From contig NZ_CP047897.1 in the NCBI RefSeq assembly GCF_009913235.1, forward strand, positions 3,037,001 to 3,101,000: a stretch of 64,000 nucleotides of DNA, read 5' to 3'. Positions 1,001-63,946 of this stretch are shown one piece after another (positions within the stretch are counted from its first letter, which is position 1; the number at the start of each line of letters is the position of its first letter). The DNA is from Nibribacter ruber. Its GTDB lineage: Bacteria; Bacteroidota; Bacteroidia; Cytophagales; Hymenobacteraceae. Made by a program: the position numbers and the translations under genes. The notes below the pieces were generated by a model. It searched no databases. It had not been told where the DNA came from and worked only from the letters and a program-made list of their open reading frames with translations.

Positions 1001-1038
1001 CGTTTTTAGCCTGTTTTCCAGAAAGTAGGCCAAAAACG
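1001..1038. repeat. PR1 palindromic repeat
   Basis: 38-bp hairpin, left arm CGTTTTTAGCCTGTTTTC, right arm GAAAGTAGGCCAAAAACG. It begins 4 bp past the stop of the HlyD gene at 1042 (minus strand). Confidence 0.95.
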
Positions 1039-1041
1039 GTT

Positions 1042-2292
1042 TTACTTCAGCTCCAGTCTATCTGTATTATTGTAAGCGTCATAAGAAGAAATCACTACTT
1101 GCTCGCCGGGTTTCAGGCCGTCCAACACCTCATAGTATTCTGGGTTCTGGCGTCCTAGCCTGATGTCGCGTTTGGTCGCAAACTTGCCCGATTCATCTAG
1201 CACGTACACCCAGGAGCCACCAGTGCTCTGGTAAAAACCGCCTCTGGAAAGTAGCACTGCCGGAGCTGGGTCTGACAGCTGTAAGCGTATCTGCAATGTC
1301 TGTCCACGTCTGATACCTTCGGGCACCTTACCGATGAACTTCATGTCCACGGGGAATTTTCCGTTGGTCACTTCTGAGTACACCAGGGAAATCTCCAATG
1401 GGTAGCTCTGGCCGTTGTAGGTGAACTCCCCGCGCTGTCCGGCAAACACCCGGCTCACATAATGTTGGTCTAGTTCTGCCTTCACCTTGAAACCGCTCAA
1501 GTCATCTATCTGCCCAATGATTTGACCTGCCTGCACCGGCGTTCCAAGTTCCACTTGAATAGAAGATAATTGTCCCGAGATGGGTGCTTTGATGTACAAA
1601 TTCTTCAGGTTGTCCTCCATCATTCTCAGGTTGCGGCTGGTGCGGGCGATGGTGGTTTCCAGTTGCGCTATCTGCTGACGGGCGTTGTTCTCCTCAAACT
1701 TCTGTGACTCCTTTTCAATCTGAAACTCGGCTTTGAGGCGCTCATAGTCCCGCTTGTAGTTGAAGAACTCCTGCTGAGAAACGGCTTTGGCCTCATACAA
1801 AGAGATGTTGCGTTGGTATAGGTCTTTGGAGGCATCTAATTGAGCGCCTAACGTGGCCAGTCTCCTGCGCAGGTTGAATTTATTTTGCTGTAAGCTCAGT
1901 TTAGAATTCTGGAGGTTGTTGATAAGATCGTTCATGAGCGTCTCTTGGTTCATGAAGTCTAATACCAGACGGTTGTTGTTGAGCTTCAGGATGGGGTCTC
2001 CTTGTTTCACGGGCTTACCGCCTTCCAGGTATTTCTCTTCTACGGTTCCGCCTTCTACCGCTGGTATTACAATGGTCTTGATGGGGTGCACAGTGCCGTC
2101 AATGGGGATAAACTCCTGGAAGGACCCTTGGCTTACGGTGGCCATGGTAATCTTCTGGCTATCCACGTTCAGCTTAGAGCTGTTGTCGGCGATGGCCAGG
2201 TAGTAGGTCAAGAAAGCAATCACGCCCACCGCCAAAGTAAGCAAGGCTATTTTCTTGGGTGTCCAGCGTTTCTTCTCAATAATGCGGTCCAT
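1042..2292 (-). CDS. HlyD-family periplasmic adaptor (membrane fusion protein)
   Basis: 416-residue membrane fusion protein expected to bridge an inner-membrane ABC permease to an outer-membrane channel. It has a short cytoplasmic N-terminus, one membrane segment at about residues 14-36, a biotinyl-lipoyl half (VKQGDPILKLNN), a long alpha-helical coiled coil at about 115-235, the second lipoyl half (YIKAPISGQLSSIQVELGTP), then beta-barrel and membrane-proximal domains ending GLKPGEQVVISSYDAYNN. The length is normal for the family. It is the first gene of the operon with the ATPase at 1-648. A sigma-54-like promoter and two tandem dyads upstream match those before the response regulator at 7993, so it is probably activated by that two-component system. 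Confidence 0.93.
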   Translation of the reverse strand: MDRIIEKKRWTPKKIALLTLAVGVIAFLTYYLAIADNSSKLNVDSQKITMATVSQGSFQEFIPIDGTVHPIKTIVIPAVEGGTVEEKYLEGGKPVKQGDPILKLNNNRLVLDFMNQETLMNDLINNLQNSKLSLQQNKFNLRRRLATLGAQLDASKDLYQRNISLYEAKAVSQQEFFNYKRDYERLKAEFQIEKESQKFEENNARQQIAQLETTIARTSRNLRMMEDNLKNLYIKAPISGQLSSIQVELGTPVQAGQIIGQIDDLSGFKVKAELDQHYVSRVFAGQRGEFTYNGQSYPLEISLVYSEVTNGKFPVDMKFIGKVPEGIRRGQTLQIRLQLSDPAPAVLLSRGGFYQSTGGSWVYVLDESGKFATKRDIRLGRQNPEYYEVLDGLKPGEQVVISSYDAYNNTDRLELK

Positions 2293-2329
2293 GATTCTTG
2301 GGGTTGACTTTTATGGTCACTCTCTTTTA

Positions 2330-2345
2330 TCCAATAGCTGTGCCA
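2330..2345 (-). promoter_or_regulatory. Sigma-54-type (-24/-12) promoter of the HlyD operon
   Basis: On the minus strand the sequence reads TGGCACAGCTATTGGA. The GG doublet and the -12 element TTGGA are separated by the 10 bp expected of a -24/-12 promoter (consensus TGGCAC-N5-TTGCW; one mismatch, G for C). The start codon is about 40 bp downstream, and two tandem dyads sit about 70 bp upstream, as for enhancer-dependent promoters. Confidence 0.6.
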
Positions 2346-2396
2346 TTTTTATAAATGCCTGAAAACCAACCGTAAACAAAGGTGTGGTTTTGCAGA

Positions 2397-2436
2397 GTGT
2401 GCGCCAGCGGACACTCTCACGTTCACGCCTGAACAC
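2397..2436. promoter_or_regulatory. Tandem 18-bp dyads, probable enhancer-binding-protein sites
   Basis: Site A at 2397-2414 is GTGTGC-N6-GGACAC; site B at 2419-2436 is ACGTTC-N6-GAACAC. A 4-bp spacer puts the centres 22 bp apart, about two helical turns. The same two-site layout with the same spacing occurs at 7845-7884, before the sigma-54 response regulator. Binding by that regulator is inferred from this. Confidence 0.65.
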
Positions 2437-2466
2437 ATCTGCGGTCAATGGCACAGCGGCAAGAAC

Positions 2467-2504
2467 CGTTTTTGGCTTCTTTTTCAGAAATGAGGCCAAA
2501 AACG
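2467..2504. repeat. PR1 palindromic repeat
   Basis: 38 bp from CGTTTTTGGC to GGCCAAAAACG, upstream of the HlyD operon control region. Confidence 0.93.
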
Positions 2505-2551
2505 AAAGGGCTGTTTTTTCGCTCTCCGTCTGTTAATACCCTCCCTCTTTT

Positions 2552-2795
2552 GTCGTCCTGAAAGGACCTTATGGGCGAACCAGATAAACCCTGCCAAATG
2601 CAGATTCTCCCCTTGAGGATTGCCCAAACGAGAGTTTGAGGCAGCGAGCGCAGCTCTGAAGAGGGGTGTTTACATCAGCAGATAAACCCAGCCAGAGAAA
2701 GCAATGCGGTCTCTATAGGGTAATCAATATTTGGTGGTAATAGCATCCATAGCAACCGCCTGTCTAGTTTGCTCCCAAGATCCTTTCAGGATGAC
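2552..2795. mobile_element. MITE-like element with 33-bp R3 terminal inverted repeats, carrying an R2 copy
   Basis: The left end begins GTCGTCCTGAAAGGACCTT and the right end (2763-2795), reverse-complemented, begins GTCATCCTGAAAGGATCTT. The 33-bp ends match at about 26 positions. An R2 repeat lies inside at 2601-2674. No coding capacity is seen in the 244 bp. A second element with the same ends, but PR1 cargo, lies at 46533-46800. No transposase is present, so mobility is inferred. Confidence 0.6.
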
Positions 2796-3551: not shown

Positions 3552-3589
3552 CGTTTTTGGCCTGTTTCTGAGAAAATAGGCCAAAAACG
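3552..3589. repeat. PR1 palindromic repeat
   Basis: 38 bp, CGTTTTTGGCCTGTTTCTG to TAGGCCAAAAACG, between yceI and pirin, inside the operon. A co-transcript would carry it as an internal hairpin. Confidence 0.95.
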
Positions 3590-7261: not shown

Positions 7262-7299
7262 CGCTTTTGGCCTCTTTTCTGGAAAACAAGCCAAAAACG
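7262..7299. repeat. PR1 palindromic repeat
   Basis: 38 bp, CGCTTTTGGCCTC to AAGCCAAAAACG; begins 12 bp after the cyclase stop. Confidence 0.93.
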
Positions 7300-7748: not shown

Positions 7749-7786
7749 CGTTTTTAGCCTCTTTTGAAGAAAACAGCCCAAAAACG
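7749..7786. repeat. PR1 palindromic repeat
   Basis: 38 bp, CGTTTTTAGCCTC to CAGCCCAAAAACG, upstream of the response-regulator control region. Confidence 0.94.
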
Positions 7787-7992: not shown

Positions 7993-9375
7993 GTGCAACC
8001 AACCTTAGGCAAAATCCTGATTATAGATGACAACGAGGACGTGCTGTTCTCGGCTAAGATGCTTTTGAAAAAGCACGCCCAGCAGGTGCTCATTGAGAAA
8101 GACCCGCGCAAGATTCCGTTCCTGCTCAATCATGATACCTATGACCTGATTCTGCTGGACATGAACTTCACCGAGGACATTTCCAGTGGCAACGAAGGCT
8201 TCTTCTGGCTCAAGGAGATTCTGGCCCGCGACCCCAGCGCCGTGGTGATTATGATTACCGCCTTCGGGGATGTGGAAATGGCGGTGCGGGCATTGAAAGA
8301 AGGCGCCACGGATTTTGTGCTCAAGCCCTGGCAGAACGAAAAACTGATTGCCACGCTCACGTCAGCTTCTCGGCTTAAAAGCTCCTACAAAGAAATCTCC
8401 TCGCTCAAGAAAACCAACTCGGCGCTGGCGTCTCAATTGAACCAGAATGTAGACTTGGTGACCGGTAAAAGCCCGGCCATGCAACAGCTCTTGCACCTCA
8501 TGCACCGCGTGGCCAAAACCGATGCGGATGTGTTACTCCTGGGGGAAAACGGAACCGGGAAAGAAGTCATCGCCCGCGCTTTGCACCAAGAATCGGCCCG
8601 CGCTGATAAAGTGTTTATTACCGTAGACATGGGCGCCGTCACTGAGACCCTGTTTGAAAGCGAGTTGTTCGGGCATAAGAAAGGCGCGTTCACAGATGCC
8701 AAGGAAGACCGCGTAGGCCGTTTTGAAATGGCGAACGGCGGTACCTTGTTCCTGGACGAAATTGGTAACCTGTCCATGGCCATGCAAGCCAAACTGCTCA
8801 CCGTCCTGCAACGCCGTGAGGTGATTCGCGTGGGCACCGGTCAGCCTATTCCCATAGATGTGCGTTTGATTTGTGCGACCAACATGCCTTTGCAGCAGAT
8901 GGTGGCGCAGGGGCAGTTCAGGCAAGACTTGCTGTACCGCATCAATACCATTGAACTTCATTTACCACCCCTGCGCAACCGCTTAGAGGATTTGCCATTA
9001 CTGGTAGAACATTTCCTGCAACGCTACGCCCAGAAGTACAAGCAACCGGCCAAGTCGGTGTCAGAGTCGGCGCTGGATAGGCTCAAGCGCTATGATTGGC
9101 CCGGCAACATCCGCGAGCTGGAGCACGTGCTGGAGCGGGCCTCCATCATTTCAGAGAATCACGTGTTGCAACCCCAGGATTTCTTCTTCTTGCAGGTTCA
9201 ACAGCAGGCGCTACATTCAAATACGGCCTCCCAAACGCATAACTTGGACGAGATGGAGAAAGCCACCGTGGTCAAGGCCATGAGTAAATACGACGGCAAT
9301 ATCTCCAAGGCGGCCAAGGAGCTAGGTTTGTCACGCGCCTCTCTCTATAGAAGACTGGAGAAGTATGGGCTTTAG
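7993..9375 (+). CDS. Sigma-54-dependent response regulator (NtrC family)
   Basis: 460 residues. The receiver (about 1-125) has the acidic pair D12-D13 and phospho-acceptor D56 in LILLDMNF. The AAA+ domain has Walker A GENGTGKE at 184-191, the sigma-54 contact loop GAFTDA at 231-236 (Asp where GAFTGA is usual) and an R-finger region ATNMPLQQMVAQGQFRQDL. A Fis-type helix-turn-helix ends the protein (NISKAAKELGLSRASLYRRL). The start is GTG. It overlaps the downstream histidine kinase by 11 bp. The matching upstream dyads suggest autoregulation and control of the HlyD operon. The stimulus is unknown; the regulated adaptor points to an envelope signal. Confidence 0.95.
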   Translation: MQPTLGKILIIDDNEDVLFSAKMLLKKHAQQVLIEKDPRKIPFLLNHDTYDLILLDMNFTEDISSGNEGFFWLKEILARDPSAVVIMITAFGDVEMAVRALKEGATDFVLKPWQNEKLIATLTSASRLKSSYKEISSLKKTNSALASQLNQNVDLVTGKSPAMQQLLHLMHRVAKTDADVLLLGENGTGKEVIARALHQESARADKVFITVDMGAVTETLFESELFGHKKGAFTDAKEDRVGRFEMANGGTLFLDEIGNLSMAMQAKLLTVLQRREVIRVGTGQPIPIDVRLICATNMPLQQMVAQGQFRQDLLYRINTIELHLPPLRNRLEDLPLLVEHFLQRYAQKYKQPAKSVSESALDRLKRYDWPGNIRELEHVLERASIISENHVLQPQDFFFLQVQQQALHSNTASQTHNLDEMEKATVVKAMSKYDGNISKAAKELGLSRASLYRRLEKYGL

Positions 9376-10723
9376 GAACTTCCGGTTTCAGATAGTAGTG
9401 CGCGTGCTGTTGCTTGTGGCCACCGTGTTTGTGTTCTTCAAAATAGGGTTTAACGCAACGCTGGTCAGTACGCAAATCTTTGTGGGCCTTTTGATTTCCG
9501 GACAGACCGTCGCACTCATCGTGTTCATGGAGCGCACTACCAACCGACTCATCAAGTTTCTAAACACCATCAAGTATGATGATTTCACCGAGGTCTTCAC
9601 TAGCAGGGGCGAGGGCGAGAAGTTTGACGAGCTGTACAAAAGCTACAATGAGGTCATCAAGAAATTCAAAGACATCCGCTCAGAGAAAGAAGCCACCACG
9701 CACTACTTCCAGGCGGTGGTTCAGCACATTGGCATCGGCATTCTCACCTTCAAGAAATCCGGTGAAGTACAGCTCATGAACAACGCGGCCAAGTGTTTAT
9801 TGCAAGTGCCCAGGCTGGAGCAAATAGAACATCTGCGTGCGGTTTCTCCGCAGTTGGTAGAGCAACTTCTTACCCTCCCCGCCGGACAAAGCGCCGTGCT
9901 TAAACTGCCGCACGGCAAAGAGCGTGTGCCCGTTTCTCTATATGCTGTGGATTTAGTCCTGCGTGGCGAGGACTTTCGGTTGGTCTCCATCCAGAATATT
10001 CAGCGCGAACTGGAGGACAAGGAGATGGAAGCCTGGCAGAACCTCATTCGCGTGCTCACCCATGAAATCATGAACTCGGTGACGCCCATCGCCTCTCTGG
10101 CCGGGAGCGTGGCCGCCGATGTGCAGGACTACCTGGAGGCCCAGCCTGGCACTCAAATCTGCTTGGAGCGCGAAGAAACCGAAGACATGGGCTTGGCTCT
10201 GCAAACTATTGAAAAACGCAGTCAGGGCTTGGTACGCTTTGTCAACGACTTTAGAAGCCTAGCCCGCGTGCCCACGCCCAAAAAGCAATTATTCTCTGTG
10301 GAGGAAATGCTCAAACAGTTGCAGTTGCTGTTTCAAGAAGAAGTAGCGCATGAAAACATTCTGTTCATTGTGAACTGCCGGCCAGCTTCCTTAACCGTCC
10401 TAGCCGACCGCGAACTGTTGGAGCAAGTGCTCATTAACCTGGTGCGCAACGCCATTCATGCCCTGGCAGACCAGCCTAACAAGACGCTGCAACTAGAAGC
10501 CTTTCAAGACGAGGACAGCCGCACGGTCTTACAGGTCTCAGATAATGGCACGGGTATTTCTGAAGAGGCGCAAGAGCAGATTTTCCTGCCGTTTTATACC
10601 ACCAAGCCCACCGGATCGGGCATTGGATTGAGCTTGTCTAAGCAGATTATGCGGTTGCACAAAGGGTCTTTGTCGGTGAGTTCAGAGTTGAGCAAGGGCA
10701 CTACGTTTACGCTTCGTTTTTAA
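9365..10723 (+). CDS. Sensor histidine kinase paired with the sigma-54 regulator
   Basis: 452-residue membrane kinase. Two membrane segments at about residues 8-27 and 33-55 are joined by a very short loop, so any sensing domain must be cytoplasmic or intramembrane. A PAS-like region follows (FQAVVQHIGIGILTF), then the DHp helix with H233 in LTHEIMNSVTPI, and HATPase boxes (NLVRNAIHAL, VSDNGTGIS, GSGIGLSLSKQIM). Its ATG lies inside the regulator gene, indicating translational coupling. The last residues RF and the stop are encoded by the left arm of a PR1 repeat, which has probably replaced the original C-terminus. Confidence 0.94.
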   Translation: MGFRNFRFQIVVRVLLLVATVFVFFKIGFNATLVSTQIFVGLLISGQTVALIVFMERTTNRLIKFLNTIKYDDFTEVFTSRGEGEKFDELYKSYNEVIKKFKDIRSEKEATTHYFQAVVQHIGIGILTFKKSGEVQLMNNAAKCLLQVPRLEQIEHLRAVSPQLVEQLLTLPAGQSAVLKLPHGKERVPVSLYAVDLVLRGEDFRLVSIQNIQRELEDKEMEAWQNLIRVLTHEIMNSVTPIASLAGSVAADVQDYLEAQPGTQICLEREETEDMGLALQTIEKRSQGLVRFVNDFRSLARVPTPKKQLFSVEEMLKQLQLLFQEEVAHENILFIVNCRPASLTVLADRELLEQVLINLVRNAIHALADQPNKTLQLEAFQDEDSRTVLQVSDNGTGISEEAQEQIFLPFYTTKPTGSGIGLSLSKQIMRLHKGSLSVSSELSKGTTFTLRF

Positions 10724-10752
10724 GCTGTTTTCCAGGAAATAGGCTAAAAACG
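10715..10752. repeat. PR1 palindromic repeat overlapping the kinase stop codon
   Basis: 38 bp, CGTTTTTAAGCTG to AGGCTAAAAACG. Its first nine bases code for Arg-Phe-stop of the histidine kinase. Confidence 0.94.
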
Positions 10753-10847: not shown

Positions 10848-10885
10848 CGTTTTTAGGCACTTTTTGTTAAAATAGGTTAAAAACG
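10848..10885. repeat. PR1 palindromic repeat (degenerate)
   Basis: 38 bp, CGTTTTTAGGCAC to AGGTTAAAAACG. The inner stem has decayed but the length is kept. It is the second copy in a 166-bp gap. Confidence 0.88.
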
Positions 10886-12508: not shown

Positions 12509-14482
12509 ATGCACAGTTCTATACTTTCTTGGGCTAAACTCACCTTATTGTTAGCCGTTTTTCTTGTGAGTCTTTCTGCCGCCGCCCAGCCGGTGCCCGT
12601 CAAGTTTGGGGAGGTGACCCCAGAGGAAGTAAAAATGAAAGTCTATGAAAAGGACACTGCCGCCGCGGCTGTGGTGCTGGTAGACTTCGGGGATTCTTAC
12701 TTCACGTTTGTGGGAGGGGAGTTCAAACTGGTGTTTCAGAGAACCCTTCGCCTGAAGATTCTTAAAAAAGCCGGCTATGACCGGGCCAACATAGAGATAC
12801 CCTACCTGTACGGCAACTCCTCTGCCAAAGAATTTGTGACCCGGGTAAAAGCCACCACCTACAACTGGGAGAACGGCACCGTGGTGGCCACGCCCCTGGA
12901 CAGCAAATCCATCTTGGACGAAAAGAAGCACGACCACCTGTATGTAAAGAAGCTAGCCTTGCCAGCCGTCAAGGAAGGCTCCCTGTTGGACATCACCTAC
13001 ACGGTCAACTCAGACTTCTTCATGAAGTTCAATGACTGGACGTTTCAAGAGTCCATTCCTACGGCGCACAGTGAGTACAGAGCCGCCATCCCAGAATACT
13101 TTGAATACAAGCAGTACGTACAGGGGCATGAACCCATGCAGGTGAGAGAGTCCAAGAAAGGCAACATGAAACACGGCACCGCCACCACCAATGAGTACCG
13201 GTGGGTCATGAAAGACGTGCCGGCGCTGGTCTCTGAGGCCTATATTACCACCGTGGCAGACCACGTTTCCAGAATAGAGTTTGAGCTGGAGTGGATAAAG
13301 ATTCCTGGCAGCCGGCACCAGCAGGTATCGGGTTCGTGGGGCAGCTTTACCAAAAGCCTGATCAATGAAGAGAACTTTGGGGGCCAGTTGGGCAAGGCAG
13401 GCTTTCTGAAGGCAGAAGTGGCTTCTTTTGCTTCCATCAAGGACACCATGGAGCGGGTGAACACCATTTATAACTTTGTGAAAGACCGCATTGAATGGAA
13501 CAAGAGCACGGGCATTCTGGCCAGCAACAGCCTGCGCAAAACCTATGACAGCAAAACCGGAAGCGCCGCCGACATCAATCTGCTCCTGATTGCCTTGCTC
13601 AAAGAAGCCGGAGTAGAGGCCTGGCCCGTAGTGCTCAGCACGCGTGACAACGGCCACATTCCGCAGCACTCGCCCCTGATCAGTAGGTTCAACTACGTGG
13701 TGGGAAGTGTAGTGGTAGGCGGGAAGACCTTGCTGATGGATGCTACAGACCCCATGCGCCCCTTGGGTTTACTGCCTCAGAACTGCTTAAATGGAAAAGG
13801 CTGGCAGGTAACAACCGGCGGCGGCGAGTGGATTCCTCTGCAAACCGGAGACAAAACCATGGAAGCCTTTAGCGCAGACCTGCACGTGCTGCCCAACGGC
13901 ACCCTGCGCGGAACGGTAAGAGAGTCGTCCAGCGGCTACGCTGGATTTAACCAGAGACGCACGGTGAAAGACATGGGAGAGCCCAAGTACCTGGAGGCGT
14001 TCACCAACAGCCAGAGCAACTTTACGCGCAAGAAGCCCGTGGTGCAAAACCTTCAGGAGCTAAGACAGCCTTTCAACCTAGAGTATGAGGTCTTAAACGA
14101 GGGAGGCGCCCAGGCCAAGGACATCATCTACCTGCATCCCATGGCACTAAAGACGCCGGCAGACAACCCCTTTAAACTGCAGGAGCGCAAATATCCGGTA
14201 GACTTTGCCTTTGCCAAAGAAGAAGTCTTTATGTGCTCTTTCACCATTCCAGAGGGTTATGTGGTAGAGGAACTGCCCAAGAGCGCGGTGATTTCTCTGC
14301 CAGAGAACAAGGGCAAGTTCACCTACATGCTGCAGGCCCAGGGAAACAAAGTGCAGGTAATTAGCAAGGTGGTCATCTCCAATCCTGTGTTTTATGCCCA
14401 GGAGTATGCTTTCCTGAAGCAGTTCTACGCCCAGATACTGGCCAAGCAGGCAGAGCAGATTGTGCTCAGAAAGAAAAGCTAA
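12509..14482 (+). CDS. Secreted DUF3857 / transglutaminase-like protein, predicted inactive (paralog 1)
   Basis: 657 residues with a signal peptide ending SAAAQ. A DUF3857 beta-rich domain (about 50-260) is followed by a transglutaminase-like domain (about 320-420). Where active members have GDC, this protein has GSA: the catalytic Cys position is Ala353, and the His position in FNHV is Tyr396 (FNYVV); the Asp-containing strand LLMDATDP is kept. The fold is therefore probably a binding module, not a protease or transglutaminase. A C-terminal beta domain ends in a KQAEQIVLRKKS-type tail shared by the paralogs at 14663, 18767 and 20906. Periplasmic or cell-surface. First of five tandem genes. 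Confidence 0.88.
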   Translation: MHSSILSWAKLTLLLAVFLVSLSAAAQPVPVKFGEVTPEEVKMKVYEKDTAAAAVVLVDFGDSYFTFVGGEFKLVFQRTLRLKILKKAGYDRANIEIPYLYGNSSAKEFVTRVKATTYNWENGTVVATPLDSKSILDEKKHDHLYVKKLALPAVKEGSLLDITYTVNSDFFMKFNDWTFQESIPTAHSEYRAAIPEYFEYKQYVQGHEPMQVRESKKGNMKHGTATTNEYRWVMKDVPALVSEAYITTVADHVSRIEFELEWIKIPGSRHQQVSGSWGSFTKSLINEENFGGQLGKAGFLKAEVASFASIKDTMERVNTIYNFVKDRIEWNKSTGILASNSLRKTYDSKTGSAADINLLLIALLKEAGVEAWPVVLSTRDNGHIPQHSPLISRFNYVVGSVVVGGKTLLMDATDPMRPLGLLPQNCLNGKGWQVTTGGGEWIPLQTGDKTMEAFSADLHVLPNGTLRGTVRESSSGYAGFNQRRTVKDMGEPKYLEAFTNSQSNFTRKKPVVQNLQELRQPFNLEYEVLNEGGAQAKDIIYLHPMALKTPADNPFKLQERKYPVDFAFAKEEVFMCSFTIPEGYVVEELPKSAVISLPENKGKFTYMLQAQGNKVQVISKVVISNPVFYAQEYAFLKQFYAQILAKQAEQIVLRKKS

Positions 14483-14662
14483 GATGAATGGCCCTTTAGC
14501 ATGGGCATCCATTTTTCTGCTTCAAATAAGGAGCCTTGCTCTTATAGGCGCTTCCATAAAAAAATATGCCCCTTTACATTAACCATTTTATTTTTCATGT
14601 TATAAATCAACTGTTTGGCTTTTAAACCAATACCGTTTACCATTCTATCTAAACCCTCTAGT

Positions 14663-16705: not shown

Positions 16706-16708
16706 AAC

Positions 16709-16736
16709 CGTTTTTAGGGCATTTCCCCGGAATTTA
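16709..16736. repeat. Half PR1 repeat between two DUF3857 genes
   Basis: CGTTTTTAGGGCATTTCCCC matches the left arm of PR1, but no right arm follows; the ATG of the next gene begins where it should be. Probably a truncated copy. Confidence 0.5.
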
Positions 16737-18652: not shown

Positions 18653-18664
18653 TTTTTAATCTGC

Positions 18665-18702
18665 CGTTTTTGGCTTGTTTTCCAGGAAAGAGGCCAAAAA
18701 CG
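18665..18702. repeat. PR1 palindromic repeat
   Basis: 38 bp, CGTTTTTGGCTTGTTTTCC to GAGGCCAAAAACG, 12 bp after the upstream stop. Confidence 0.95.
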
Positions 18703-18766
18703 GCCCATCGCCTCCTGCTCTGGCACTACTAGGGCAGGAGGCTTTTTACGCGTTTACTAGTTCCAA

Positions 18767-20800: not shown

Positions 20801-20806
20801 GCCCAT

Positions 20807-20844
20807 CGTTTTTGGGCTGTTTTCCAGGAAACAGGCCAAAAACG
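20807..20844. repeat. PR1 palindromic repeat
   Basis: 38 bp, CGTTTTTGGGCTGTTTTCC to CAGGCCAAAAACG, 7 bp after the upstream stop. Confidence 0.95.
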
Positions 20845-20905
20845 ATGCTTCTTTCTATGTTGTGTTAGGCAACCGTCTGTTATCAATTCAATTATTTTTA
20901 TTTCT

Positions 20906-22951: not shown

Positions 22952-22989
22952 CGTTTTTGGGCTGTTTTCTTGAAAACAGCCCAAAAACG
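22952..22989. repeat. PR1 palindromic repeat
   Basis: 38 bp, nearly perfect stem: CGTTTTTGGGCTGTTTTC and GAAAACAGCCCAAAAACG; 7 bp after the stop. Confidence 0.96.
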
Positions 22990-23984: not shown

Positions 23985-24022
23985 CGTTTTTGGCCTCTTT
24001 TGGTCAAAACAGGTCAAAAACG
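23985..24022. repeat. PR1 palindromic repeat
   Basis: 38 bp, CGTTTTTGGCCTC to AGGTCAAAAACG, just past the stop of the ABC exporter (minus strand). Confidence 0.94.
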
Positions 24023-27106: not shown

Positions 27107-27144
27107 CGTTTTTGGCTTAGTTTCTCAGAAACAGGCCAAAAACG
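27107..27144. repeat. PR1 palindromic repeat
   Basis: 38 bp, CGTTTTTGGCTTAG to CAGGCCAAAAACG, 42 bp after the leucine dehydrogenase stop. Confidence 0.94.
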
Positions 27145-27688: not shown

Positions 27689-27726
27689 CGTTTTCAACCT
27701 AATTCCCACAAAATACCCCAAAAACG
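27689..27726. repeat. PR1 palindromic repeat (strongly decayed)
   Basis: 38 bp, CGTTTTCAACCTAAT to ATACCCCAAAAACG; the ends and length are kept while the stem has drifted. Confidence 0.75.
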
Positions 27727-29143: not shown

Positions 29144-29181
29144 CGTTTTTCAGCTATTTTTCTGAAAACTAGCCAAAAACG
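29144..29181. repeat. PR1 palindromic repeat
   Basis: 38 bp, CGTTTTTCAGCTA to TAGCCAAAAACG, between nusB and the ytxH-like gene. Confidence 0.93.
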
Positions 29182-33056: not shown

Positions 33057-33094
33057 CATTTTTGGCCTGTTTCCCGGAAATCAGGCCAAAAACG
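33057..33094. repeat. PR1 palindromic repeat
   Basis: 38 bp, CATTTTTGGCCTGTTTCCC to TCAGGCCAAAAACG; first G replaced by A. Confidence 0.95.
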
Positions 33095-33614: not shown

Positions 33615-33721
33615 AGGCAGTGTCAGAAAGTCACGGATTTAACCTCCGCGCTATAGAAGGCAAGACGGAAAAGACAGTCCAAGGCCTTTATAAGAACACC
33701 AACAGCAAGCAATCAAACAAT

Positions 33722-33759
33722 CGTTTTTCGCCTAAATCTCAGAAAACAAGCCAAAAACG
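33722..33759. repeat. PR1 palindromic repeat
   Basis: 38 bp, CGTTTTTCGCCTA to AAGCCAAAAACG, 15 bp past the stop of the GNAT gene (minus strand). Confidence 0.92.
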
Positions 33760-35671: not shown

Positions 35672-38188
35672 GTGGGAAAGACAAAAAAGGTAGCCCGATA
35701 TTTTTTTTTCGTGATGGGAGGGCTGGTGCTGGTGGCAGGACTGGCGGCGGGCACTATTTATCTTTACCAGGACAAAATCATACAGCTGTTTATCACGGAG
35801 GCCAACAAACACATCAAGACCAAGGTGGCCGTGGAGAAGATAGACGTCTCGCTCTGGGAGAAATTCCCGCAGGTGGCCATCTCCCTCCAAAACGTTGAAA
35901 TCACCGAAGCTGTCCCCGGCAGCACCGCTCCGCTGGCCAAACTCAAAAACATTCACAGCACGTTCAGCCTCTGGGACCTGGTGTGGGGAGAATACCGCAT
36001 CAGAGAAATCTATTTAGAGGAGGGCGAGGTGCATGTAAAGGTGCTTTCCAATGGCGAGGTCAACTATCTTTTTTACCAGTCTGCAGACACCGCGCAAACC
36101 GGAAAGCTCTCTTTTGACCTGCAGGGAATTACGCTGCGCAAGGTGCACGTGCTGTATGTAGACGCTCCCCTCCAGCAAAGGTATGACGTGCAGGCCCACC
36201 TGATGAAAGCCGCCCTCACCCTAGAGGAACCACTTGTGAACATTAAGCTCAAAGGCAACGCGCGGGTGAACACCATTCGGTTGGCCGGCAATGAATACCT
36301 CAAGCAGAAGGAACTCACGCTGGGCAGCCAGTTATCTGTAGACGCAGAACGCAAGCACGTGGCCCTGCAGCCCTCTGAGTTGCGCGTGGGCAAGGCGCAG
36401 TATCAGTTTGGCGGCACCATTGACTACGCCAACAAAACACACTTGGACCTGGCCCTGGAAGGCAAGAACACCGATGTACAGTCGCTGGTAGCCTTGCTGC
36501 CGCGCCAGGCCACCCAGTCTTTTGCGCAGTACCAGAGCCAGGGCGATGTCTATTTTAAAGGAACGGTGACCGGCGAGGCCTCCCATAAGAAAAGCCCAGC
36601 CATACAGGTAAGCTTCGGATGCCGGCAGGCTTCTTTCTTCCACCCAGAGTACCAGGAGAAGCTAGAACAGGTGAGCTTTACGGGGCGCTTTTCCAACGGC
36701 ACGCTGCGCAACAGCCAAACCTCAGTGGTGGAGCTGCGCAACATCAAAGGACAGTTGCGCGGCAAACCATTCTCTGGAGAATTTGTGTATGCCAACTTTC
36801 TCAACCCAGACGTGCAAGCCAAGCTGAAGGCCGATCTAGACGTAGCGCACGTTTTTGGCCTATTTCCGGTAAAAGAGGTCAAAAACGGCAGCGGACGGGC
36901 GCTGGTAGATTTTTCTTTTGCGGGCAACCTACGCGCGTTCAAAGCCAATCCTAGGGGAGCGGGCATTTCTACTTCCGGGGAGGTACAGTTGCAGAACGTG
37001 AGCCTGCTGTTCAGCCAGCACCCACTGCCGTTCAAAGGCGTACAGGGCACGTTTCAGGTGCGCAGGAATGACGTGGCCATCTCAGACCTCAAAGGAACCA
37101 TTGGGGAGACGGATTTTCTGGTGAACGGCTTCCTGAAGAACGCCCTGGGGTATCTATTCCTGGACAATCAACGACTGCGCGTAGAGGCCGATTTTAAGAC
37201 TCGTTATTTGAACCTGGATCAGTTGCTGGCTGCCTCTACCACGGCCCCGCCGGTCAAGCGGCCATCTGGGAAAGTGGATGCCTACGGCTATGCCTTGAAC
37301 ATGCCCGCCCACCTGGAACTGGACATTAACGCCGCAGTGACTAGTTTGAAGTTCAGACGATTCAAAGCCAAGCAGCTACACGGCAACGTGCGGCTGCAGA
37401 ACCAGGTCATCTCTTCGCCCAACATTGCCATGCAGGTGGTGGGAGGCCGGTTTCAGGTGCAGGGAAGCGTAGACGCCCGGCAGCCGCTCATCAAGATCAA
37501 CTCAACGGCCAACATCCAGGACATTAAGGTAGACAGTTTGTTTTATGCGTTTGAAGACTTCGGGCAGGCCTTTATTACCCAGCGCCACCTGCATGGCACC
37601 TTGACGGCGCGCATTGAGTCTGAGCTATTCTTTGACCACCACCTCAACGCCCGCGAAGACCTGATGCAGGCCGAAATCAACACTACGCTGCGCGACGGCC
37701 AACTGCTCAACTGGGCCCCATTGCAGAAGATGAGCACCTTCATTAGTCGGGGTGAACTGGCCAACCTGCGCTTCTCAGAAATCAAGAACAACTTCTACAT
37801 TCAGGACCGCACCATTTATATTCCAGAGATGGAAATCAAGTCCAGCACCAGCCGGTTCAACAACATCACGCTGTCTGGCATGCACACCTTTGACCAGCAG
37901 ATGGACTATAAGCTCAAGATCCCGTTGTCTGGTGCCACCAAAGCCAAGCGCGACAAAGACGAGCGCTTTGGCGTGATAGCCACCACCGCCACTGCCAGCC
38001 CCAACCTGTTCCTCACCATCAAAGGCCGCGAGGGCAACTTTAAGGTAGCCTATGACCAGGAACGCGTCAAAGCCAAGATAGCCGCCGACCTCAAAACCGA
38101 AAAGCAGGAATTGAAAGAGCTCTTCCAGGGCAAGAAGAAGGAAGAGAAAAAGGCCGTGAAACCCACCACCGAGTACTTTGACTTTTAA
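35672..38188 (+). CDS. AsmA family protein containing an in-frame PR1 repeat
   Basis: 838 residues from GTG 35672. An N-terminal membrane segment (VARYFFFVMGGLVLVAGLAAGTIYL region) anchors a long periplasmic body of repeated beta strands: AsmA/TamB-type lipid-transfer scaffold, with the AsmA_2 C-terminal domain (RDGQLLNWAPLQKMSTFI, FNNITLSGMHTFDQQMDY). A highly charged Lys/Glu tail ends it. Members help organise outer-membrane lipids. Unusually, bases 36850-36887 within the frame are a PR1 repeat, encoding VFGLFPVKEVKN at about residue 394-405. Confidence 0.88.
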   Translation: MGKTKKVARYFFFVMGGLVLVAGLAAGTIYLYQDKIIQLFITEANKHIKTKVAVEKIDVSLWEKFPQVAISLQNVEITEAVPGSTAPLAKLKNIHSTFSLWDLVWGEYRIREIYLEEGEVHVKVLSNGEVNYLFYQSADTAQTGKLSFDLQGITLRKVHVLYVDAPLQQRYDVQAHLMKAALTLEEPLVNIKLKGNARVNTIRLAGNEYLKQKELTLGSQLSVDAERKHVALQPSELRVGKAQYQFGGTIDYANKTHLDLALEGKNTDVQSLVALLPRQATQSFAQYQSQGDVYFKGTVTGEASHKKSPAIQVSFGCRQASFFHPEYQEKLEQVSFTGRFSNGTLRNSQTSVVELRNIKGQLRGKPFSGEFVYANFLNPDVQAKLKADLDVAHVFGLFPVKEVKNGSGRALVDFSFAGNLRAFKANPRGAGISTSGEVQLQNVSLLFSQHPLPFKGVQGTFQVRRNDVAISDLKGTIGETDFLVNGFLKNALGYLFLDNQRLRVEADFKTRYLNLDQLLAASTTAPPVKRPSGKVDAYGYALNMPAHLELDINAAVTSLKFRRFKAKQLHGNVRLQNQVISSPNIAMQVVGGRFQVQGSVDARQPLIKINSTANIQDIKVDSLFYAFEDFGQAFITQRHLHGTLTARIESELFFDHHLNAREDLMQAEINTTLRDGQLLNWAPLQKMSTFISRGELANLRFSEIKNNFYIQDRTIYIPEMEIKSSTSRFNNITLSGMHTFDQQMDYKLKIPLSGATKAKRDKDERFGVIATTATASPNLFLTIKGREGNFKVAYDQERVKAKIAADLKTEKQELKELFQGKKKEEKKAVKPTTEYFDF
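36850..36887. repeat. PR1 repeat inside a coding sequence
   Basis: 38 bp, CGTTTTTGGCCTATTTCC to AGAGGTCAAAAACG. By eye 31 of 38 bases equal the PR1 consensus. Read in the AsmA frame it has no stop. Confidence 0.85.
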
Positions 38189-38190: not shown

Positions 38191-38228
38191 CGTTTTTGGG
38201 CTGTTTTGGAGGAAAGAGGCCAAAAACA
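38191..38228. repeat. PR1 palindromic repeat
   Basis: 38 bp, CGTTTTTGGGCTGTTTTGG to GAGGCCAAAAACA; 3 bp after the AsmA stop. Confidence 0.94.
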
Positions 38229-40320: not shown

Positions 40321-40358
40321 CGTTTTTGACTTGTTTTCTGAAAAATAGCCGAAAAACG
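40321..40358. repeat. PR1 palindromic repeat
   Basis: 38 bp, CGTTTTTGACTTGTTTTC to TAGCCGAAAAACG. Confidence 0.93.
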
Positions 40359-43028: not shown

Positions 43029-43066
43029 CGTTTTTGGCTTGTTTTCCGGGAAATAGGCCAAAAACG
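43029..43066. repeat. PR1 palindromic repeat
   Basis: 38 bp, CGTTTTTGGCTTGTTTTCC to TAGGCCAAAAACG. A second half copy (CGTTTTTAGCCGCTCCG) follows at 43074-43090, before terB. Confidence 0.95.
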
Positions 43067-43963: not shown

Positions 43964-44013
43964 TCCCCGTTTTTGGGCTGTTTTCACCAAAACAGCCCAA
44001 AAACGGGGATTTT
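43964..44013 (+). terminator. Terminator built on a PR1 copy (after terB)
   Basis: PR1 at 43968-44005 has a perfect stem that continues outward (ATCCCCGTTTTTGGGCTG and its complement) to about 21 bp and is followed by ATTTTTGTTT. This copy looks like a working rho-independent terminator. Confidence 0.75.
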
Positions 44014-46591: not shown

Positions 46592-46629
46592 CGTTTTTGC
46601 CCTACTTTCCAGAAAACAGCCCAAAAACG
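46592..46629. repeat. PR1 palindromic repeat
   Basis: 38 bp, CGTTTTTGCCCTACTTTCC to CAGCCCAAAAACG, within the R3-bounded element. Confidence 0.94.
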
Positions 46630-46704: not shown

Positions 46705-46742
46705 CGTTTTTAGCCTTATTCTCTGAAAACAGGCTAAAAACG
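46705..46742. repeat. PR1 palindromic repeat
   Basis: 38 bp, CGTTTTTAGCCTTATTCTC to CAGGCTAAAAACG, second copy in the R3-bounded element. Confidence 0.94.
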
Positions 46743-48691: not shown

Positions 48692-48729
48692 CGTTTTTAG
48701 CCTCTTTTCTGAGAATCAAGCCAAAAACG
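48692..48729. repeat. PR1 palindromic repeat
   Basis: 38 bp, CGTTTTTAGCCTC to AAGCCAAAAACG, 3 bp past the anmK stop (minus strand). Confidence 0.94.
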
Positions 48730-50331: not shown

Positions 50332-50369
50332 CGTTTTTGGGCTGTTTTCTGGGAAATAGGCCAAAAACG
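50332..50369. repeat. PR1 palindromic repeat
   Basis: 38 bp, CGTTTTTGGGCTGTTTTC to TAGGCCAAAAACG, between convergent genes. Confidence 0.95.
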
Positions 50370-53092: not shown

Positions 53093-53130
53093 CGTTTTTG
53101 GGCTGTTATGGTGAAAAGAGGCTAAAAACG
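53093..53130. repeat. PR1 palindromic repeat
   Basis: 38 bp, CGTTTTTGGGCTGTTATGG to GAGGCTAAAAACG, exactly between two convergent stops (2 bp from each). Confidence 0.94.
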
Positions 53131-53897: not shown

Positions 53898-53935
53898 TGT
53901 TTTTGGGCTGTTTTCTGGGAATTAGGTGAAAAACG
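53898..53935. repeat. PR1 palindromic repeat
   Basis: 38 bp, TGTTTTTGGGCTGTTTTC to TTAGGTGAAAAACG, between the twin genes. Confidence 0.92.
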
Positions 53936-57985: not shown

Positions 57986-58023
57986 CGTTTTTGGGCTAGT
58001 TTCCAGAAAACAGGCTAAAAACG
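57986..58023. repeat. PR1 palindromic repeat
   Basis: 38 bp, CGTTTTTGGGCTAGTTTCC to CAGGCTAAAAACG, upstream of the EamA gene. Confidence 0.94.
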
Positions 58024-58620: not shown

Positions 58621-58658
58621 CGTTTTTGGCTTGTTTTCCTGAAAACAGGCCAAAAACG
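58621..58658. repeat. PR1 palindromic repeat
   Basis: 38 bp, CGTTTTTGGCTTGTTTTCC to CAGGCCAAAAACG; near-perfect stem. Confidence 0.96.
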
Positions 58659-59789: not shown

Positions 59790-60734
59790 ATGAAAGGTTT
59801 CATACACCCGCGTCTGCATCCATTTGTCTCTTTGTTGTTGCTGACGGTCTTTGTCATAGCAGGCTTGTTTGTGGGCATGTTCCTGGCCATGGTGGTGAAC
59901 AAGGCGCTGTACGGCTACGGCATGATGCAGATGACCGAGATTCTGCAAAGCCCCACGGATTTTCCCGAAGGACGCCAGGCCATGTTGCTCTACCAGGCCA
60001 TTACGCACCTGGGCGGTTTTACGCTGGGTACCCTGGCCTTCCTTAAATTCAACGCCCAGGCTCCTTTTTCATTTTTATCGCCGCGCACGCACGTACCCGC
60101 CGGGCTTTTGTTGATGAGCGCTCTGTTAATTGTCCTGATTATGCCGGCCAATTCCTGGCTGATTGAATGGAACGTCAATTTTAAGTTTCCGGAGTTTCTG
60201 AGAGCCTTTGAGCAGGACGCCAAAGCCACTGAAGAACGCCTGCGCGTACTGACCGAGTACCTGACCCGTTTTGAAACCGTGGGTTCCCTGATTTTTGGGT
60301 TAGTGGTGGTGGCCGTCATTCCGGCTATTGGCGAGGAGTTGGTCTTTAGGGGCGTGGCGCAGCAGGAGCTGGCGCGTTGGTTCAAAAATCCGCACGTGGG
60401 CATCTGGTTGGCGGCTTTCTTGTTTGGCGCGGTGCACTTTCAGTTCTATGGCTTCTTCCCGAGGATGGCCTTGGGCGCGGTGTTGGGCTATCTCTACTTA
60501 TGGTCTAAGAACATCTGGGTGCCCATTGTGGGCCATTTTATGAACAACGGCTTCACGGTGCTTTTTCTGTACCTGCACCAGCGCGGAACGGTAGACGTAG
60601 AGATTGAATCTACAGAGGCCATGCCGTGGTATTGGTCCTTGGGTTCTGTGGTATTGAGCGGTGCCGTTTTGTACGTGCTGCAAAAAGGATACAACCAAGT
60701 AAGCCAACCGGCAGTAAACGAAGACCGTTTTTAG
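59790..60734 (+). CDS. CPBP-family intramembrane metalloprotease
   Basis: 314 residues with about eight membrane helices. Catalytic motif GEELVFRGVAQQEL (EExxxR) at about 182-195, second motif FLFGAVHFQF with His, third near VPIVGHFMNN. ABI/CAAX-type proteases cleave membrane proteins. The last residues RF and the stop TAG come from a PR1 copy at 60726. Confidence 0.92.
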   Translation: MKGFIHPRLHPFVSLLLLTVFVIAGLFVGMFLAMVVNKALYGYGMMQMTEILQSPTDFPEGRQAMLLYQAITHLGGFTLGTLAFLKFNAQAPFSFLSPRTHVPAGLLLMSALLIVLIMPANSWLIEWNVNFKFPEFLRAFEQDAKATEERLRVLTEYLTRFETVGSLIFGLVVVAVIPAIGEELVFRGVAQQELARWFKNPHVGIWLAAFLFGAVHFQFYGFFPRMALGAVLGYLYLWSKNIWVPIVGHFMNNGFTVLFLYLHQRGTVDVEIESTEAMPWYWSLGSVVLSGAVLYVLQKGYNQVSQPAVNEDRF

Positions 60735-60762
60735 CCTCTTTTCCAGAAAACTGCCCAAAACG
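60726..60762. repeat. PR1 palindromic repeat overlapping the CPBP stop
   Basis: 37 bp, the only copy with a length change (one A missing at the right end): CGTTTTTAGCCTC to ACTGCCCAAAACG. First nine bases code Arg-Phe-stop. Confidence 0.92.
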
Positions 60763-63013: not shown

Positions 63014-63054
63014 GCCCCGGGCACCGCAAGGTTAAAAATTTATAAAACTTAAGA

Positions 63055-63092
63055 AACCGCTTCCCGTCTTTGTAGATGGGAGGCGGTTTTTT
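63055..63092 (+). terminator. Rho-independent terminator of gdh
   Basis: AACCGCTTCCCGTC pairs with GATGGGAGGCGGTT around TTTGTA, then TTTTTTT. Confidence 0.9.
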
Positions 63093-63094
63093 TA

Positions 63095-63102
63095 TATTTT
63101 TG
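63095..63102 (+). promoter_or_regulatory. -7 promoter element of psd
   Basis: TATTTTTG followed by C, directly after the gdh terminator and 24 bp before the psd ATG. Confidence 0.45.
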
Positions 63103-63125
63103 CTGTAACTATCTAAAAGGAGTAC

Positions 63126-63791
63126 ATGAAAATTCACAAAGAAGGACGAAAGATTCTGTTCTTTACCTTGCTCGGCTTGTTGATCGCCAACCTGGTACTT
63201 TATTATTTTAACAGCAACCTCCTCGTTAACCGAATTTTCACCGGTGCCTCTGTTATTGTCTTTCTGCTCATTCTGCAGTTCTTCCGGAGCCCGTACCGCA
63301 ACCTGTTGTTGCATGAGGACTTGGTCATAGCCCCTGCCGATGGAAAAGTGGTGGTGATTGAAGACGTGGAGGAGCCGGAGTACTTCCAGGGTATGCGCAA
63401 GCAGATTTCCATCTTCATGTCGCCTATTAACGTGCACATTACCCGCAACCCGGTTTCTGGCGTGGTGAAGTACTTTAAATACCACCCGGGTAATTACCTG
63501 GTGGCGTGGCACCCAAAATCCAGCACCAAGAACGAGCGTACCACCACCGTGGTTGAGTCTCTAGCTGGTCCAGAGGTGTTGTTCCGGCAGATTGCCGGCG
63601 CCATGGCCCGCCGCATTGTCTGGTATGTGACCGAAGGCGATGAAGTAAACCAAGGCGAGGAGTTCGGGTTCATTAAGTTTGGCTCCCGCGTAGACATCTT
63701 TGTGCCGCTAGACACCGAGGTGAGAGTGCAGCTGGGTCAAAAAACCAAAGGCGGCCAGACCGTGATTGCCCAGTTGAAGACAACGGTATAG
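63126..63791 (+). CDS. psd: Phosphatidylserine decarboxylase family protein
   Basis: 221 residues, short (group B) form. Two N-terminal membrane segments (LLGLLIANLVLYYF and TGASVIVFLLILQFF), catalytic region VIAPADGKVVVIED, SPINVHITRNPVSG with His, and the self-cleavage site FGS in FGFIKFGSRVDIF, where Ser becomes the pyruvoyl group. Makes phosphatidylethanolamine. Functionally linked with cdsA upstream. Confidence 0.94.
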   Translation: MKIHKEGRKILFFTLLGLLIANLVLYYFNSNLLVNRIFTGASVIVFLLILQFFRSPYRNLLLHEDLVIAPADGKVVVIEDVEEPEYFQGMRKQISIFMSPINVHITRNPVSGVVKYFKYHPGNYLVAWHPKSSTKNERTTTVVESLAGPEVLFRQIAGAMARRIVWYVTEGDEVNQGEEFGFIKFGSRVDIFVPLDTEVRVQLGQKTKGGQTVIAQLKTTV

Positions 63792-63835
63792 TATCAAGTA
63801 GCACGTAGCAAGTATCAAGATTTAAAAAGGTATAT

Positions 63836-63879
63836 AAAGCAGAAGCGGTTCCTTGCATGCAAGGAACCGCTTCTGCTTT
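63836..63879. terminator. Perfect hairpin terminator after psd
   Basis: AGCAGAAGCGGTTCCTTGCA and its complement form a perfect palindrome of over 40 bp with TTT tails, 45 bp after the stop. Confidence 0.85.
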
Positions 63880-63908
63880 AAAGGAGTGGATAGCGATTAG
63901 TCTATTTT

Positions 63909-63946
63909 CGTTTTTGGCTTGTTTTCCAGAAAATAGGCCAAAAACG
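63909..63946. repeat. PR1 palindromic repeat
   Basis: 38 bp, CGTTTTTGGCTTGTTTTCC to TAGGCCAAAAACG, near the right edge of the window. Confidence 0.96.

What the first reader, a model, noticed from the sequence alone, without database searches (positions are those of the whole stretch)
1001..63946. A 38-bp palindrome (PR1) occurs 31 times in 64 kb and keeps its exact length
The consensus arms are CGTTTTTGGCCTGTTTTC and its complement. I count 31 copies (plus two half copies at 16709 and 43074), about one per 2 kb, mostly within 3-15 bp of a stop codon. By my count 30 of 31 are exactly 38 bp although stem and loop bases vary; compensatory-looking changes occur (GGCC/GGCC, GGGC/GCCC, AGCC/GGCT). 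Length constancy with drift suggests selection on a folded RNA or DNA structure, or recent spread by a replicative process like REP/RAYT. No transposase is in the window. Most copies lack a following T run, so simple terminators do not explain them.
Basis: seen in the sequence. Interest (0 to 1): 0.8.

Follow-up and report, generated by a model that had tools for sequence, protein, structure and literature searches.

The report
Genome-wide 38-bp DNA recognition mark
The sampled genomes of the bacterium Rufibacter carry a 38-base mirror-image DNA mark scattered along the chromosome; species spell it differently and, in this genome, its two halves vary independently, so it looks like a docking site read by a protein, possibly a 'this is my own DNA' tag, rather than a folded RNA or a jumping element.

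Summary
In detail: 31 copies in the window. In 464 kb of this Rufibacter genome 127 of 129 perfect-ended copies are 38 bp, 2 are 39; the genome has 1138 against 5 for a reversed control. A folded structure is not supported here: arms of 183 copies pair no more than when shuffled among copies (2615 of 3294; 2621.5±12.7), though five other species show weak excess pairing. Mobility is not supported: most sites recur at shared places in sister species, three in-gene sites align without indels, RAYT genes are not enriched beside sites, and a species without a RAYT hit keeps its sites. All 16 Rufibacter genomes searched have the motif (46-1425 hits); other genera 0-2. Species have their own spelling at shared positions: 'dialects'. 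Best reading: a symmetric double-stranded-DNA site read by an unidentified protein and evolving in place. Closest working analogue: uptake-sequence (DUS/USS) dialects; a chromosome-architecture protein is nearly as likely. A sister genus has another abundant motif, laid out like a Haemophilus USS. No binding protein was identified; competence genes were not searched.

The parts
1001..1038 (.). 38-bp site
   Evidence: score 33/36, 3 bp from stop of 1042-2292(-)
2467..2504 (.). 38-bp site, divergent gap
   Evidence: 31/36
3552..3589 (.). 38-bp site
   Evidence: 33/36, 10 bp after stop
7262..7299 (.). 38-bp site
   Evidence: 33/36, 12 bp after stop
7749..7786 (.). 38-bp site
   Evidence: 32/36
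10715..10752 (.). 38-bp site overlapping the stop codon of 9365-10723(+); the G007 counterpart is 37 bp
   Evidence: 30/36
10848..10885 (.). 38-bp site, weak
   Evidence: 27/36
18665..18702 (.). 38-bp site
   Evidence: 33/36, 12 bp after stop
20807..20844 (.). 38-bp site
   Evidence: 34/36, 6 bp after stop
22952..22989 (.). 38-bp site, 18 of 18 arm pairs complementary
   Evidence: 34/36, 6 bp after stop
23985..24022 (.). 38-bp site
   Evidence: 32/36, 6 bp from stop of 24029-25816(-)
27107..27144 (.). 38-bp site
   Evidence: 31/36
27689..27726 (.). 38-bp site, weakest counted
   Evidence: 26/36
29144..29181 (.). 38-bp site; a site scoring >=26 lies at the same place in G007, G006, G013, G004, G012 and G005
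   Evidence: 29/36
33057..33094 (.). 38-bp site
   Evidence: 33/36, 9 bp after stop
33722..33759 (.). 38-bp site
   Evidence: 29/36, 15 bp from stop
36850..36887 (.). 38-bp site inside coding gene 35672-38188(+), substitutions only between species
   Evidence: 31/36; ungapped in 5 species
38191..38228 (.). 38-bp site
   Evidence: 31/36, 2 bp after stop
40321..40358 (.). 38-bp site
   Evidence: 30/36
43029..43066 (.). 38-bp site, divergent gap
   Evidence: 33/36
43968..44005 (.). 38-bp site
   Evidence: 33/36
46592..46629 (.). 38-bp site
   Evidence: 32/36
46705..46742 (.). 38-bp site, aligned to a G007 site in poorly alignable intergenic DNA
   Evidence: 30/36
48692..48729 (.). 38-bp site
   Evidence: 30/36, 2 bp from stop
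50332..50369 (.). 38-bp site beside a terminator-like hairpin; no site at >=26 in the G007 interval
   Evidence: 33/36
53093..53130 (.). 38-bp site
   Evidence: 31/36, 2 bp after stop
53898..53935 (.). 38-bp site
   Evidence: 29/36, 3 bp from stop
57986..58023 (.). 38-bp site
   Evidence: 32/36
58621..58658 (.). 38-bp site, best match in window
   Evidence: 35/36
60726..60762 (.). site with a 1-bp deletion (37 bp), overlapping the stop of 59790-60734(+)
   Evidence: 29/36 in the 38-bp register
63909..63946 (.). 38-bp site
   Evidence: 34/36

Best explanation
The 38-bp element is a two-fold-symmetric double-stranded-DNA recognition site. Each 18-bp half carries two T-tracts about one helical turn apart (GTTT at 2-5, TTT at 15-17), mirrored in the other half. 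A DNA-binding protein of the genus (not identified), whose specificity shifts between species, reads the two halves, probably as a dimer. Sites persist and change dialect in place by base substitution, in DNA that tolerates them, often just after stop codons. The mechanism I think most likely is that of a DNA-uptake signal (DUS/USS-like): uptake machinery prefers self DNA carrying the mark, and recombination of incoming fragments holds about one mark per 2 to 2.5 kb across the core chromosome. Shown: constant geometry; no arm covariation in three of eight species; shared positions; in-place change; dialects; even spacing; scarcity in two low-GC stretches. Inferred: the protein, its dimeric binding and the uptake role.
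For: Arms independent in G000: 2615 of 3294 pairs versus 2621.5±12.7 permuted; strict set of 175, 2523 of 3150 versus 2534.8±12.3. G007 and G005 show none in total (z -0.7 each). In G005 an arm is mostly one of two types, tightly linked inside an arm but with no excess of same-type pairs across arms (41, expected 43.4). Flanks carry 0.4 bit at ±1 and at most 0.11 bit per base beyond. Shared positions with species-specific spelling: a site in the syntenic interval for 28 of 31 mapped (G007), 22 of 25 (G013), 18 of 24 (G006), 15 of 23 (G005); reversed-motif hits 0 of 133, 99, 99 and 66 blocks in the same genomes. Site identity to G007 85% against 60% for intergenic flanks. Three in-gene sites align without gaps across 5, 16 and 9 genomes. 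Even spacing: 21 gaps with two or more sites, expected 36.7±3.2. Two low-GC 20-kb stretches have 0 and 1 sites. DUS/USS share dialects, core-genome bias, permissive placement and inverted pairs at gene ends (PMC3630211 abstract; PMC2397512 and PMC12616744 passages). The sister-genus motif has a USS-like layout. A Bacteroidota, Riemerella columbina, prefers its own DNA (PMC7965970 section 16).
Against: Competence and pilus genes were not searched, and no binding protein was found; only HU was tested. The element is long and symmetric: 51.5 bits in G000, 30-55 over eight species, against DUS of about 13 and USS of up to 32 nt (PMC12616744 passage). Five of eight species show weak excess arm pairing (z 3.1-6.4). 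In G000 the loose set gives z 3.5, two partner pairs (7/32 and 18/21) are associated (z 6.6 and 4.6), and folding of transcribed-strand sites is 2.8 sd more stable than arm-swapped controls. In G005 positions 1 and 6 are associated across arms (z 5.7 and 4.0). Position retention suggests that single sites may matter, which drive alone does not need; yet retention is poorer in G009, G004 and G012 (4 of 22, 9 of 16, 10 of 16).
Confidence: 0.42

Rival explanations
1. Chromosome-architecture or roadblock protein: the same dsDNA site is bound by an abundant dimeric nucleoid protein that spaces domains or insulates neighbouring transcription units; the protein's specificity drifts and the sites follow.
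For: All dsDNA evidence above; sites spaced more evenly than chance; retained at shared positions; strong preference for gene 3' sides in short gaps (80-150 bp gaps, eight species pooled by me: convergent 54/78, codirectional 81/189, divergent 2/32).
Against: 51.5 bits per site in G000 is far more than needed to find some 1700 sites (extrapolated) in 4.35 Mb; divergent gaps have as many sites as convergent ones in G004 (17/26, 19/30); the classical HU (PF00216) has 1-2 hits in each of 39 genomes, with or without sites.
Confidence: 0.35
2. RNA or DNA hairpin element (3' UTR stabiliser, bidirectional terminator, cruciform).
For: Near-palindromy; frequent location just after stops; weak excess of pairing in G006, G004, G012, G009, G013; lower folding energy than arm-swapped controls in several species (G009 -11.41 vs -6.78, G006 -13.84 vs -11.26, G000 -13.41 vs -12.71±0.25).
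Against: No covariation in G000 (strict), G007, G005; G005 folds no better than arm-swapped controls (-13.48 vs -13.85); at nine free positions only 42-68% of pairs are Watson-Crick in the eight species; G-U on the transcribed strand not clearly above A-C (477 vs 422 over all; G000 114 vs 82, G007 27 vs 43); T-run downstream in 14 of 101.
Confidence: 0.12
3. REP-like mobile palindrome spread by RAYT transposases.
For: RAYT relatives in 15 of 16 Rufibacter, REP_Tyr_transpos for the two tested; placement 3' of genes; 2 of 20 RAYT loci (L147, L160) have a site on both sides within 300 bp, L160 near-perfect ones.
Against: RAYT genes have no more flanking sites than other genes (up 5/20, down 9/20, both 2/20; background of 492 genes 37%, 44%, 16%; the NHxH check of frame passed in 15 of the 20); G007 has no RAYT hit and 551-577 strict sites; no one-sided tag; in-gene sites without indels.
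Confidence: 0.06
4. Methylation- or repair-driven iterated palindrome (HIP1-like).
For: High copy, palindromic, other motifs in relatives, as described for HIPs (PMC4390886 abstract).
Against: 38 bp is far beyond a usual methyltransferase site (recalled), and the GGCC of the G000 consensus is not the majority in G005 or G013.
Confidence: 0.05

Closest known systems
Neisserial DUS and Pasteurellaceae USS (uptake sequences)
   Same: High copy, clade dialects, core-genome bias, permissive placement, inverted pairs at gene ends; USS has a 9-nt core plus AT-rich regions, up to 32 nt (PMC3630211 abstract; PMC2397512 and PMC12616744 passages).
   Different: Here 38 bp and symmetric, few single half-sites, another phylum; no uptake test or receptor known.
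REP sequences / REPtrons (GTAG- and CGTC-tagged repeats)
   Same: 20-40 bp palindromes, high copy, often downstream of genes (PMC3733652 passages).
   Different: No one-sided tag, no arm covariation in G000, no RAYT enrichment, most positions shared between species.
HIP1 highly iterated palindrome of cyanobacteria
   Same: Lineage-specific iterated palindromes that can be replaced by alternates (PMC4390886 abstract).
   Different: 8 bp, linked to methyltransferases; ours 38 bp.
Operators of dimeric DNA-binding proteins (general knowledge)
   Same: Two-fold symmetric, fixed spacing, independent half-sites.
   Different: Some 1700 copies (extrapolated from 183 in 464 kb) and 51.5 bits per site in G000.

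Membership tests
DUS/USS uptake sequence | Strong over-representation in the genome | tested here: met
   1138 vs 5 control; CGTTTTTGG 79 vs 3.4 expected in 180 kb
DUS/USS uptake sequence | Clade-specific dialects | tested here: met
   Distinct consensus in G000, G013, G006, G005
DUS/USS uptake sequence | Placement mostly in permissive, intergenic DNA with some copies in genes | tested here: met
   7 of 177 inside ORFs in G000; range over eight species 1 of 64 (G013) to 10 of 78 (G012)
DUS/USS uptake sequence | Scarce in recently acquired DNA | tested here: inconclusive
   Two low-GC 20-kb stretches have 0 and 1 sites; their origin was not established
DUS/USS uptake sequence | Genome encodes a competence/pilus uptake machine | not tested
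DUS/USS uptake sequence | Enhances uptake or transformation through a receptor | not testable with these tools
   Needs competent cells
REP element mobilised by RAYT | Stem-loop kept by compensatory change | tested here: not met
   for G000; weak excess in five other species
REP element mobilised by RAYT | One-sided GTAG/CGTC-type tag | tested here: not met
   Ends symmetric; at most 0.11 bit per flanking base beyond ±1
REP element mobilised by RAYT | RAYT gene flanked by the repeat | tested here: not met
   No enrichment at 20 RAYT loci against 492 genes; two loci flanked on both sides
Intrinsic terminator | GC-rich hairpin followed by T-run | tested here: not met
   TTTT within 12 nt downstream in 14 of 101 oriented sites
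HIP-like methylation palindrome | Conserved methyltransferase target | tested here: inconclusive
   GGCC of G000 not the majority in G005, G013; methylation data not available
HU-protein site | Lineage-specific HU (PF00216) paralogue where sites exist | tested here: not met
   1-2 PF00216 hits in each of 39 genomes with or without sites; other HU-like families not tested

The most novel reading that the evidence does not exclude
Hymenobacteraceae have a self-DNA marking system of their own: Rufibacter uses a 38-bp symmetric mark with species dialects and a sister genus a 29-bp asymmetric mark laid out like an extended USS. This would be an independent origin of uptake-signal genomes beside Neisseriaceae and Pasteurellaceae, in Bacteroidota, with a dimeric double-stranded-DNA receptor whose change of specificity rewrites well over a thousand chromosomal sites in place.
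Probability: 0.33. Interest if true: 0.92.

Novelty: new variant of a known kind. Interest (0 to 1): 0.78.

Why it matters
A DNA word of some 50 bits repeated about every 2 kb, mostly kept at the same places while its spelling changes between species, is a natural experiment in how a DNA-binding protein and more than a thousand of its sites change together. If it is an uptake mark it would extend motif-based self-DNA recognition to a new phylum and bear on why Riemerella prefers its own DNA. If it is an architectural site it would be an unusually sequence-specific bacterial chromosome mark. Either way the reader protein should be reachable by one pull-down.

Tried and rejected
Rfam: only two tRNAs in the window. 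A pattern with one base too many gave 4 places; kept as a check on length. The first strict cross-species pattern gave high counts only in G000 and G007; a looser core pattern found hundreds in most other Rufibacter. Arm-pair counts with the loose core set in G000 gave z 3.5; that set of 188 admits a few non-sites (reversed control 6), and the consensus-based sets show none. HU as a lineage-specific cause: rejected. RAYT flanking: not enriched (one search did not orient the loci, one search does). Information content was used as a clue only, on sites chosen by their core, so it is somewhat inflated. My own gene finders (the first kind reused in 37, 43, 54, 66, 73, 78, 79, 82)-79% of G000 bases coding, so some genes are missed and gap statistics are approximate. 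One search mixed strands; one search repeats it oriented. Both-sided changes in 24 G000/G007 site pairs chosen by hand (17 seen, 12.9 expected, 7 keeping a pair) are too few to decide. One search found no recurrent palindrome in 140 kb each of G017, G018, G019. Of the 7 to 10 in-gene sites of the G000 sample three were followed across species. Paper searches: Rufibacter with palindrome and intergenic, Hymenobacter with uptake sequence, Hymenobacter with extragenic palindrome: 0 papers each; the top listings showed nothing on this element.
Full report
What was checked. The window lies at G000:C1:3037001-3101000 of a single-contig, 4,352,178-bp genome. The named-genome scan for the exact consensus found two records, both Rufibacter (records of the window's own genome may be left out there), so I place the genome in Rufibacter (Bacteroidota, Hymenobacteraceae).

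The observation. 31 sites in the window score at least 26 of 36. Five resampled windows have none, and the reversed consensus gives 0 in 464 kb. Twenty spaced 20-kb stretches plus the window (464 kb) hold 183 sites at >=25 of 36: one per 2.5 kb, mean spacing 2.05 kb between neighbours inside a stretch; extrapolated, about 1700 per genome. Of 129 perfect-ended copies in this sample 127 are 38 bp and 2 are 39.

Not a hairpin in this genome. Across the 183 copies each arm varies, but not in step with its partner: Watson-Crick pairs 2615 of 3294 against 2621.5±12.7 after shuffling right arms among copies, and 2523 of 3150 against 2534.8±12.3 in the 175 that score >=28. Per position, 11, 13, 17 and the centre fall below expectation and 8, 10 and 18 somewhat above. 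By mutual information most dependences are between neighbouring bases and in the centre, but partners 7/32 and 18/21 are also associated (z 6.6, 4.6). In eight species the total excess pairing at nine free positions was z -0.7 (G007), -0.7 (G005), 3.5 (G000, loose set), 3.1 (G013), 6.4 (G006), 4.8 (G004), 4.7 (G012), 4.6 (G009); the share of paired cells was 42-68%. So five other species show modest symmetry beyond independence, strongest at positions 6 and 7 in most of them. I read this as symmetric half-site preference or mixed dialects, but it counts against the simplest form of my reading. Folding tells the same: sites fold better than arm-swapped controls in G006, G004, G012 and G009, by 2.8 sd in G000, and not in G005. 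It is not clearly strand-specific: G-U 477 against A-C 422 on the transcribed strand over all species.

Half-sites as units. In G005 arms come mostly in two types (base 6 = A in 108 arms, T in 34, C in 6); base 6 predicts bases 7, 10, 11, 14 and 18 of the same arm, but same-type pairs across arms are 41 against 43.4 expected. Positions 1 and 6 are nonetheless associated across arms (z 5.7, 4.0), with T-T pairs rare. In G006, G004, G012 and G009 same-type pairs are in excess (66 vs 52.3, 62 vs 43.3, 47 vs 38.1, 27 vs 18.2).

Not an insertion. For each window site the matching interval was located in seven relatives. A site at >=26 of 36 was found for 28 of 31 mapped sites in G007, 22 of 25 in G013, 18 of 24 in G006, 15 of 23 in G005, 10 of 16 in G012, 9 of 16 in G004 and 4 of 22 in G009; some window sites share a target, so distinct target sites are 24, 18, 14, 11, 6, 6 and 2. 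Reversed motifs gave 0 in the four species tested. The three misses in G007 are 10715 (a 37-bp counterpart), 10848 and 50332 (the whole interval differs). Site identity to G007 is 85% (28 pairs, shared targets included), intergenic flanks 60%, coding flanks 73%, unrelated DNA 47%. The site at 36850 is inside a coding gene: relatives align without a gap, G006 and G013 have ordinary codons there (core score 8 of 16) and G000, G007 and G009 have the site (15, 14, 14), with amino-acid differences such as L/F and P or A/K. Two more in-gene sites align without gaps in the site in 16 of 16 genomes (core 12-16) and in the 9 of 16 genomes where the gene was found (core 14-16).

Distribution. The core pattern occurs 46 to 1425 times in each of 16 Rufibacter genomes and 0-2 times in 134 genomes of five other genera of the family, reversed control 0 throughout. 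In 395 genomes of the phylum only G000 exceeds one hit; three others have 1, and two have 1 for the reversed control. In gaps of 80-150 bp, pooled over eight species, convergent pairs have a site in 54 of 78, codirectional 81 of 189, divergent 2 of 32; in longer gaps the contrast shrinks, and in G004 divergent gaps have as many as convergent (17/26, 19/30). Two sites in one gap are rarer than expected (21 vs 36.7±3.2 in G000, 2 vs 9.8±2.0 in G007). Two low-GC stretches of the twenty have 0 and 1 sites; the other eighteen have 5-13.

Transposases. Three RAYT hits exist in G000; the two tested are called REP_Tyr_transpos above cut-off. 15 of 16 Rufibacter have relatives of one of them; G007 has none at E<=0.001 yet 551 core-pattern sites. 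At 20 RAYT loci, sites within 300 bp occur upstream in 5, downstream in 9 and on both sides in 2, against 37%, 44% and 16% of 492 comparable genes.

The sister genus. G016 (g2) has 0 hits to the Rufibacter pattern but 1125 matches to AAACGCTA-N4-TT-N9-AAA (529 forward, 596 reverse); G021 has 108; the 14 Rufibacter genomes of that search have 0-2 and the other genera 0-5. In 120 kb, 77 copies score >=17 of 22 (reversed control 2), 25 inside ORFs, with 8 overlapping inverted pairs. Core, T-tract and A-tract are about a helical turn apart, resembling the extended USS (PMC12616744, passages). G019 (g5) over-represents ACCTAGGGC/CCTAGG. So at least two, perhaps three, genera of this family carry their own iterated words.

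Mechanism. The data support a double-stranded recognition site that evolves in place and drifts into dialects. Among functions, uptake-signal drive explains dialects, even spacing, permissive placement, in-place change and paucity in odd DNA, and Riemerella columbina shows own-DNA preference with no established motif (PMC7965970, section 16 read). Against it: competence genes were not searched, no receptor is known, and the element is unusually long. An architectural protein explains nearly as much. I give 0.42 to the uptake-type reading, 0.35 to architecture, 0.12 to RNA, 0.06 to REP and 0.05 to HIP-like; that the site is read as double-stranded DNA by a protein I hold at about 0.8. On re-checking I dropped my earlier point that DUS/USS sit largely in coding DNA (a PMC2397512 passage says most DUS are intergenic); I left the odds as they were.

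Papers: abstract and outline seen for PMC3630211 and PMC4390886; passages for PMC12306157, PMC3733652, PMC12616744, PMC2397512 and PMC7965970 (plus its section 16).

Noticed in passing
L085, L228-L232 (G016): Sister genus g2 has its own abundant 29-bp asymmetric motif ~AAAACGCTATnCTTTTnnnnnnAAAAAGT (1125 core matches in G016, 108 in G021), partly in coding DNA and sometimes as overlapping inverted pairs; layout like an extended USS.
   Followed up: partly
L090-L091, L243-L247 (G019): Genus g5 over-represents ACCTAGGGC (55 vs 1.6 expected) around the hexamer CCTAGG, in coding and intergenic DNA.
   Followed up: partly
L086-L087, L233-L237 (G017): Genus g3 mildly over-represents GCCATATAT and TATATA words.
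   Followed up: no
window 33095-33720: Stretch of about 600 bp, GC-rich by eye, with no gene called by my finder and no counterpart at the matching place in G007.
   Followed up: no
window 12509-22945: Five tandem DUF3857/transglutaminase-like genes, with sites after the third, fourth and fifth and a weak half copy after the second.
   Followed up: no
L055 (G000:C1:2640001-2660000), L061 (4040001-4060000): Low-GC stretches (42.5%, 39.6%) nearly free of sites; possibly acquired islands.
   Followed up: no
G007 genome: The only one of 16 Rufibacter genomes with no RAYT hit.
   Followed up: yes
L083-L084, L123-L129 (G005): Many sites are hybrids of a CGTTTAGCGGCTCTTTTTC-like arm with a differently spelled arm, suggesting an asymmetric second class.
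   Followed up: partly
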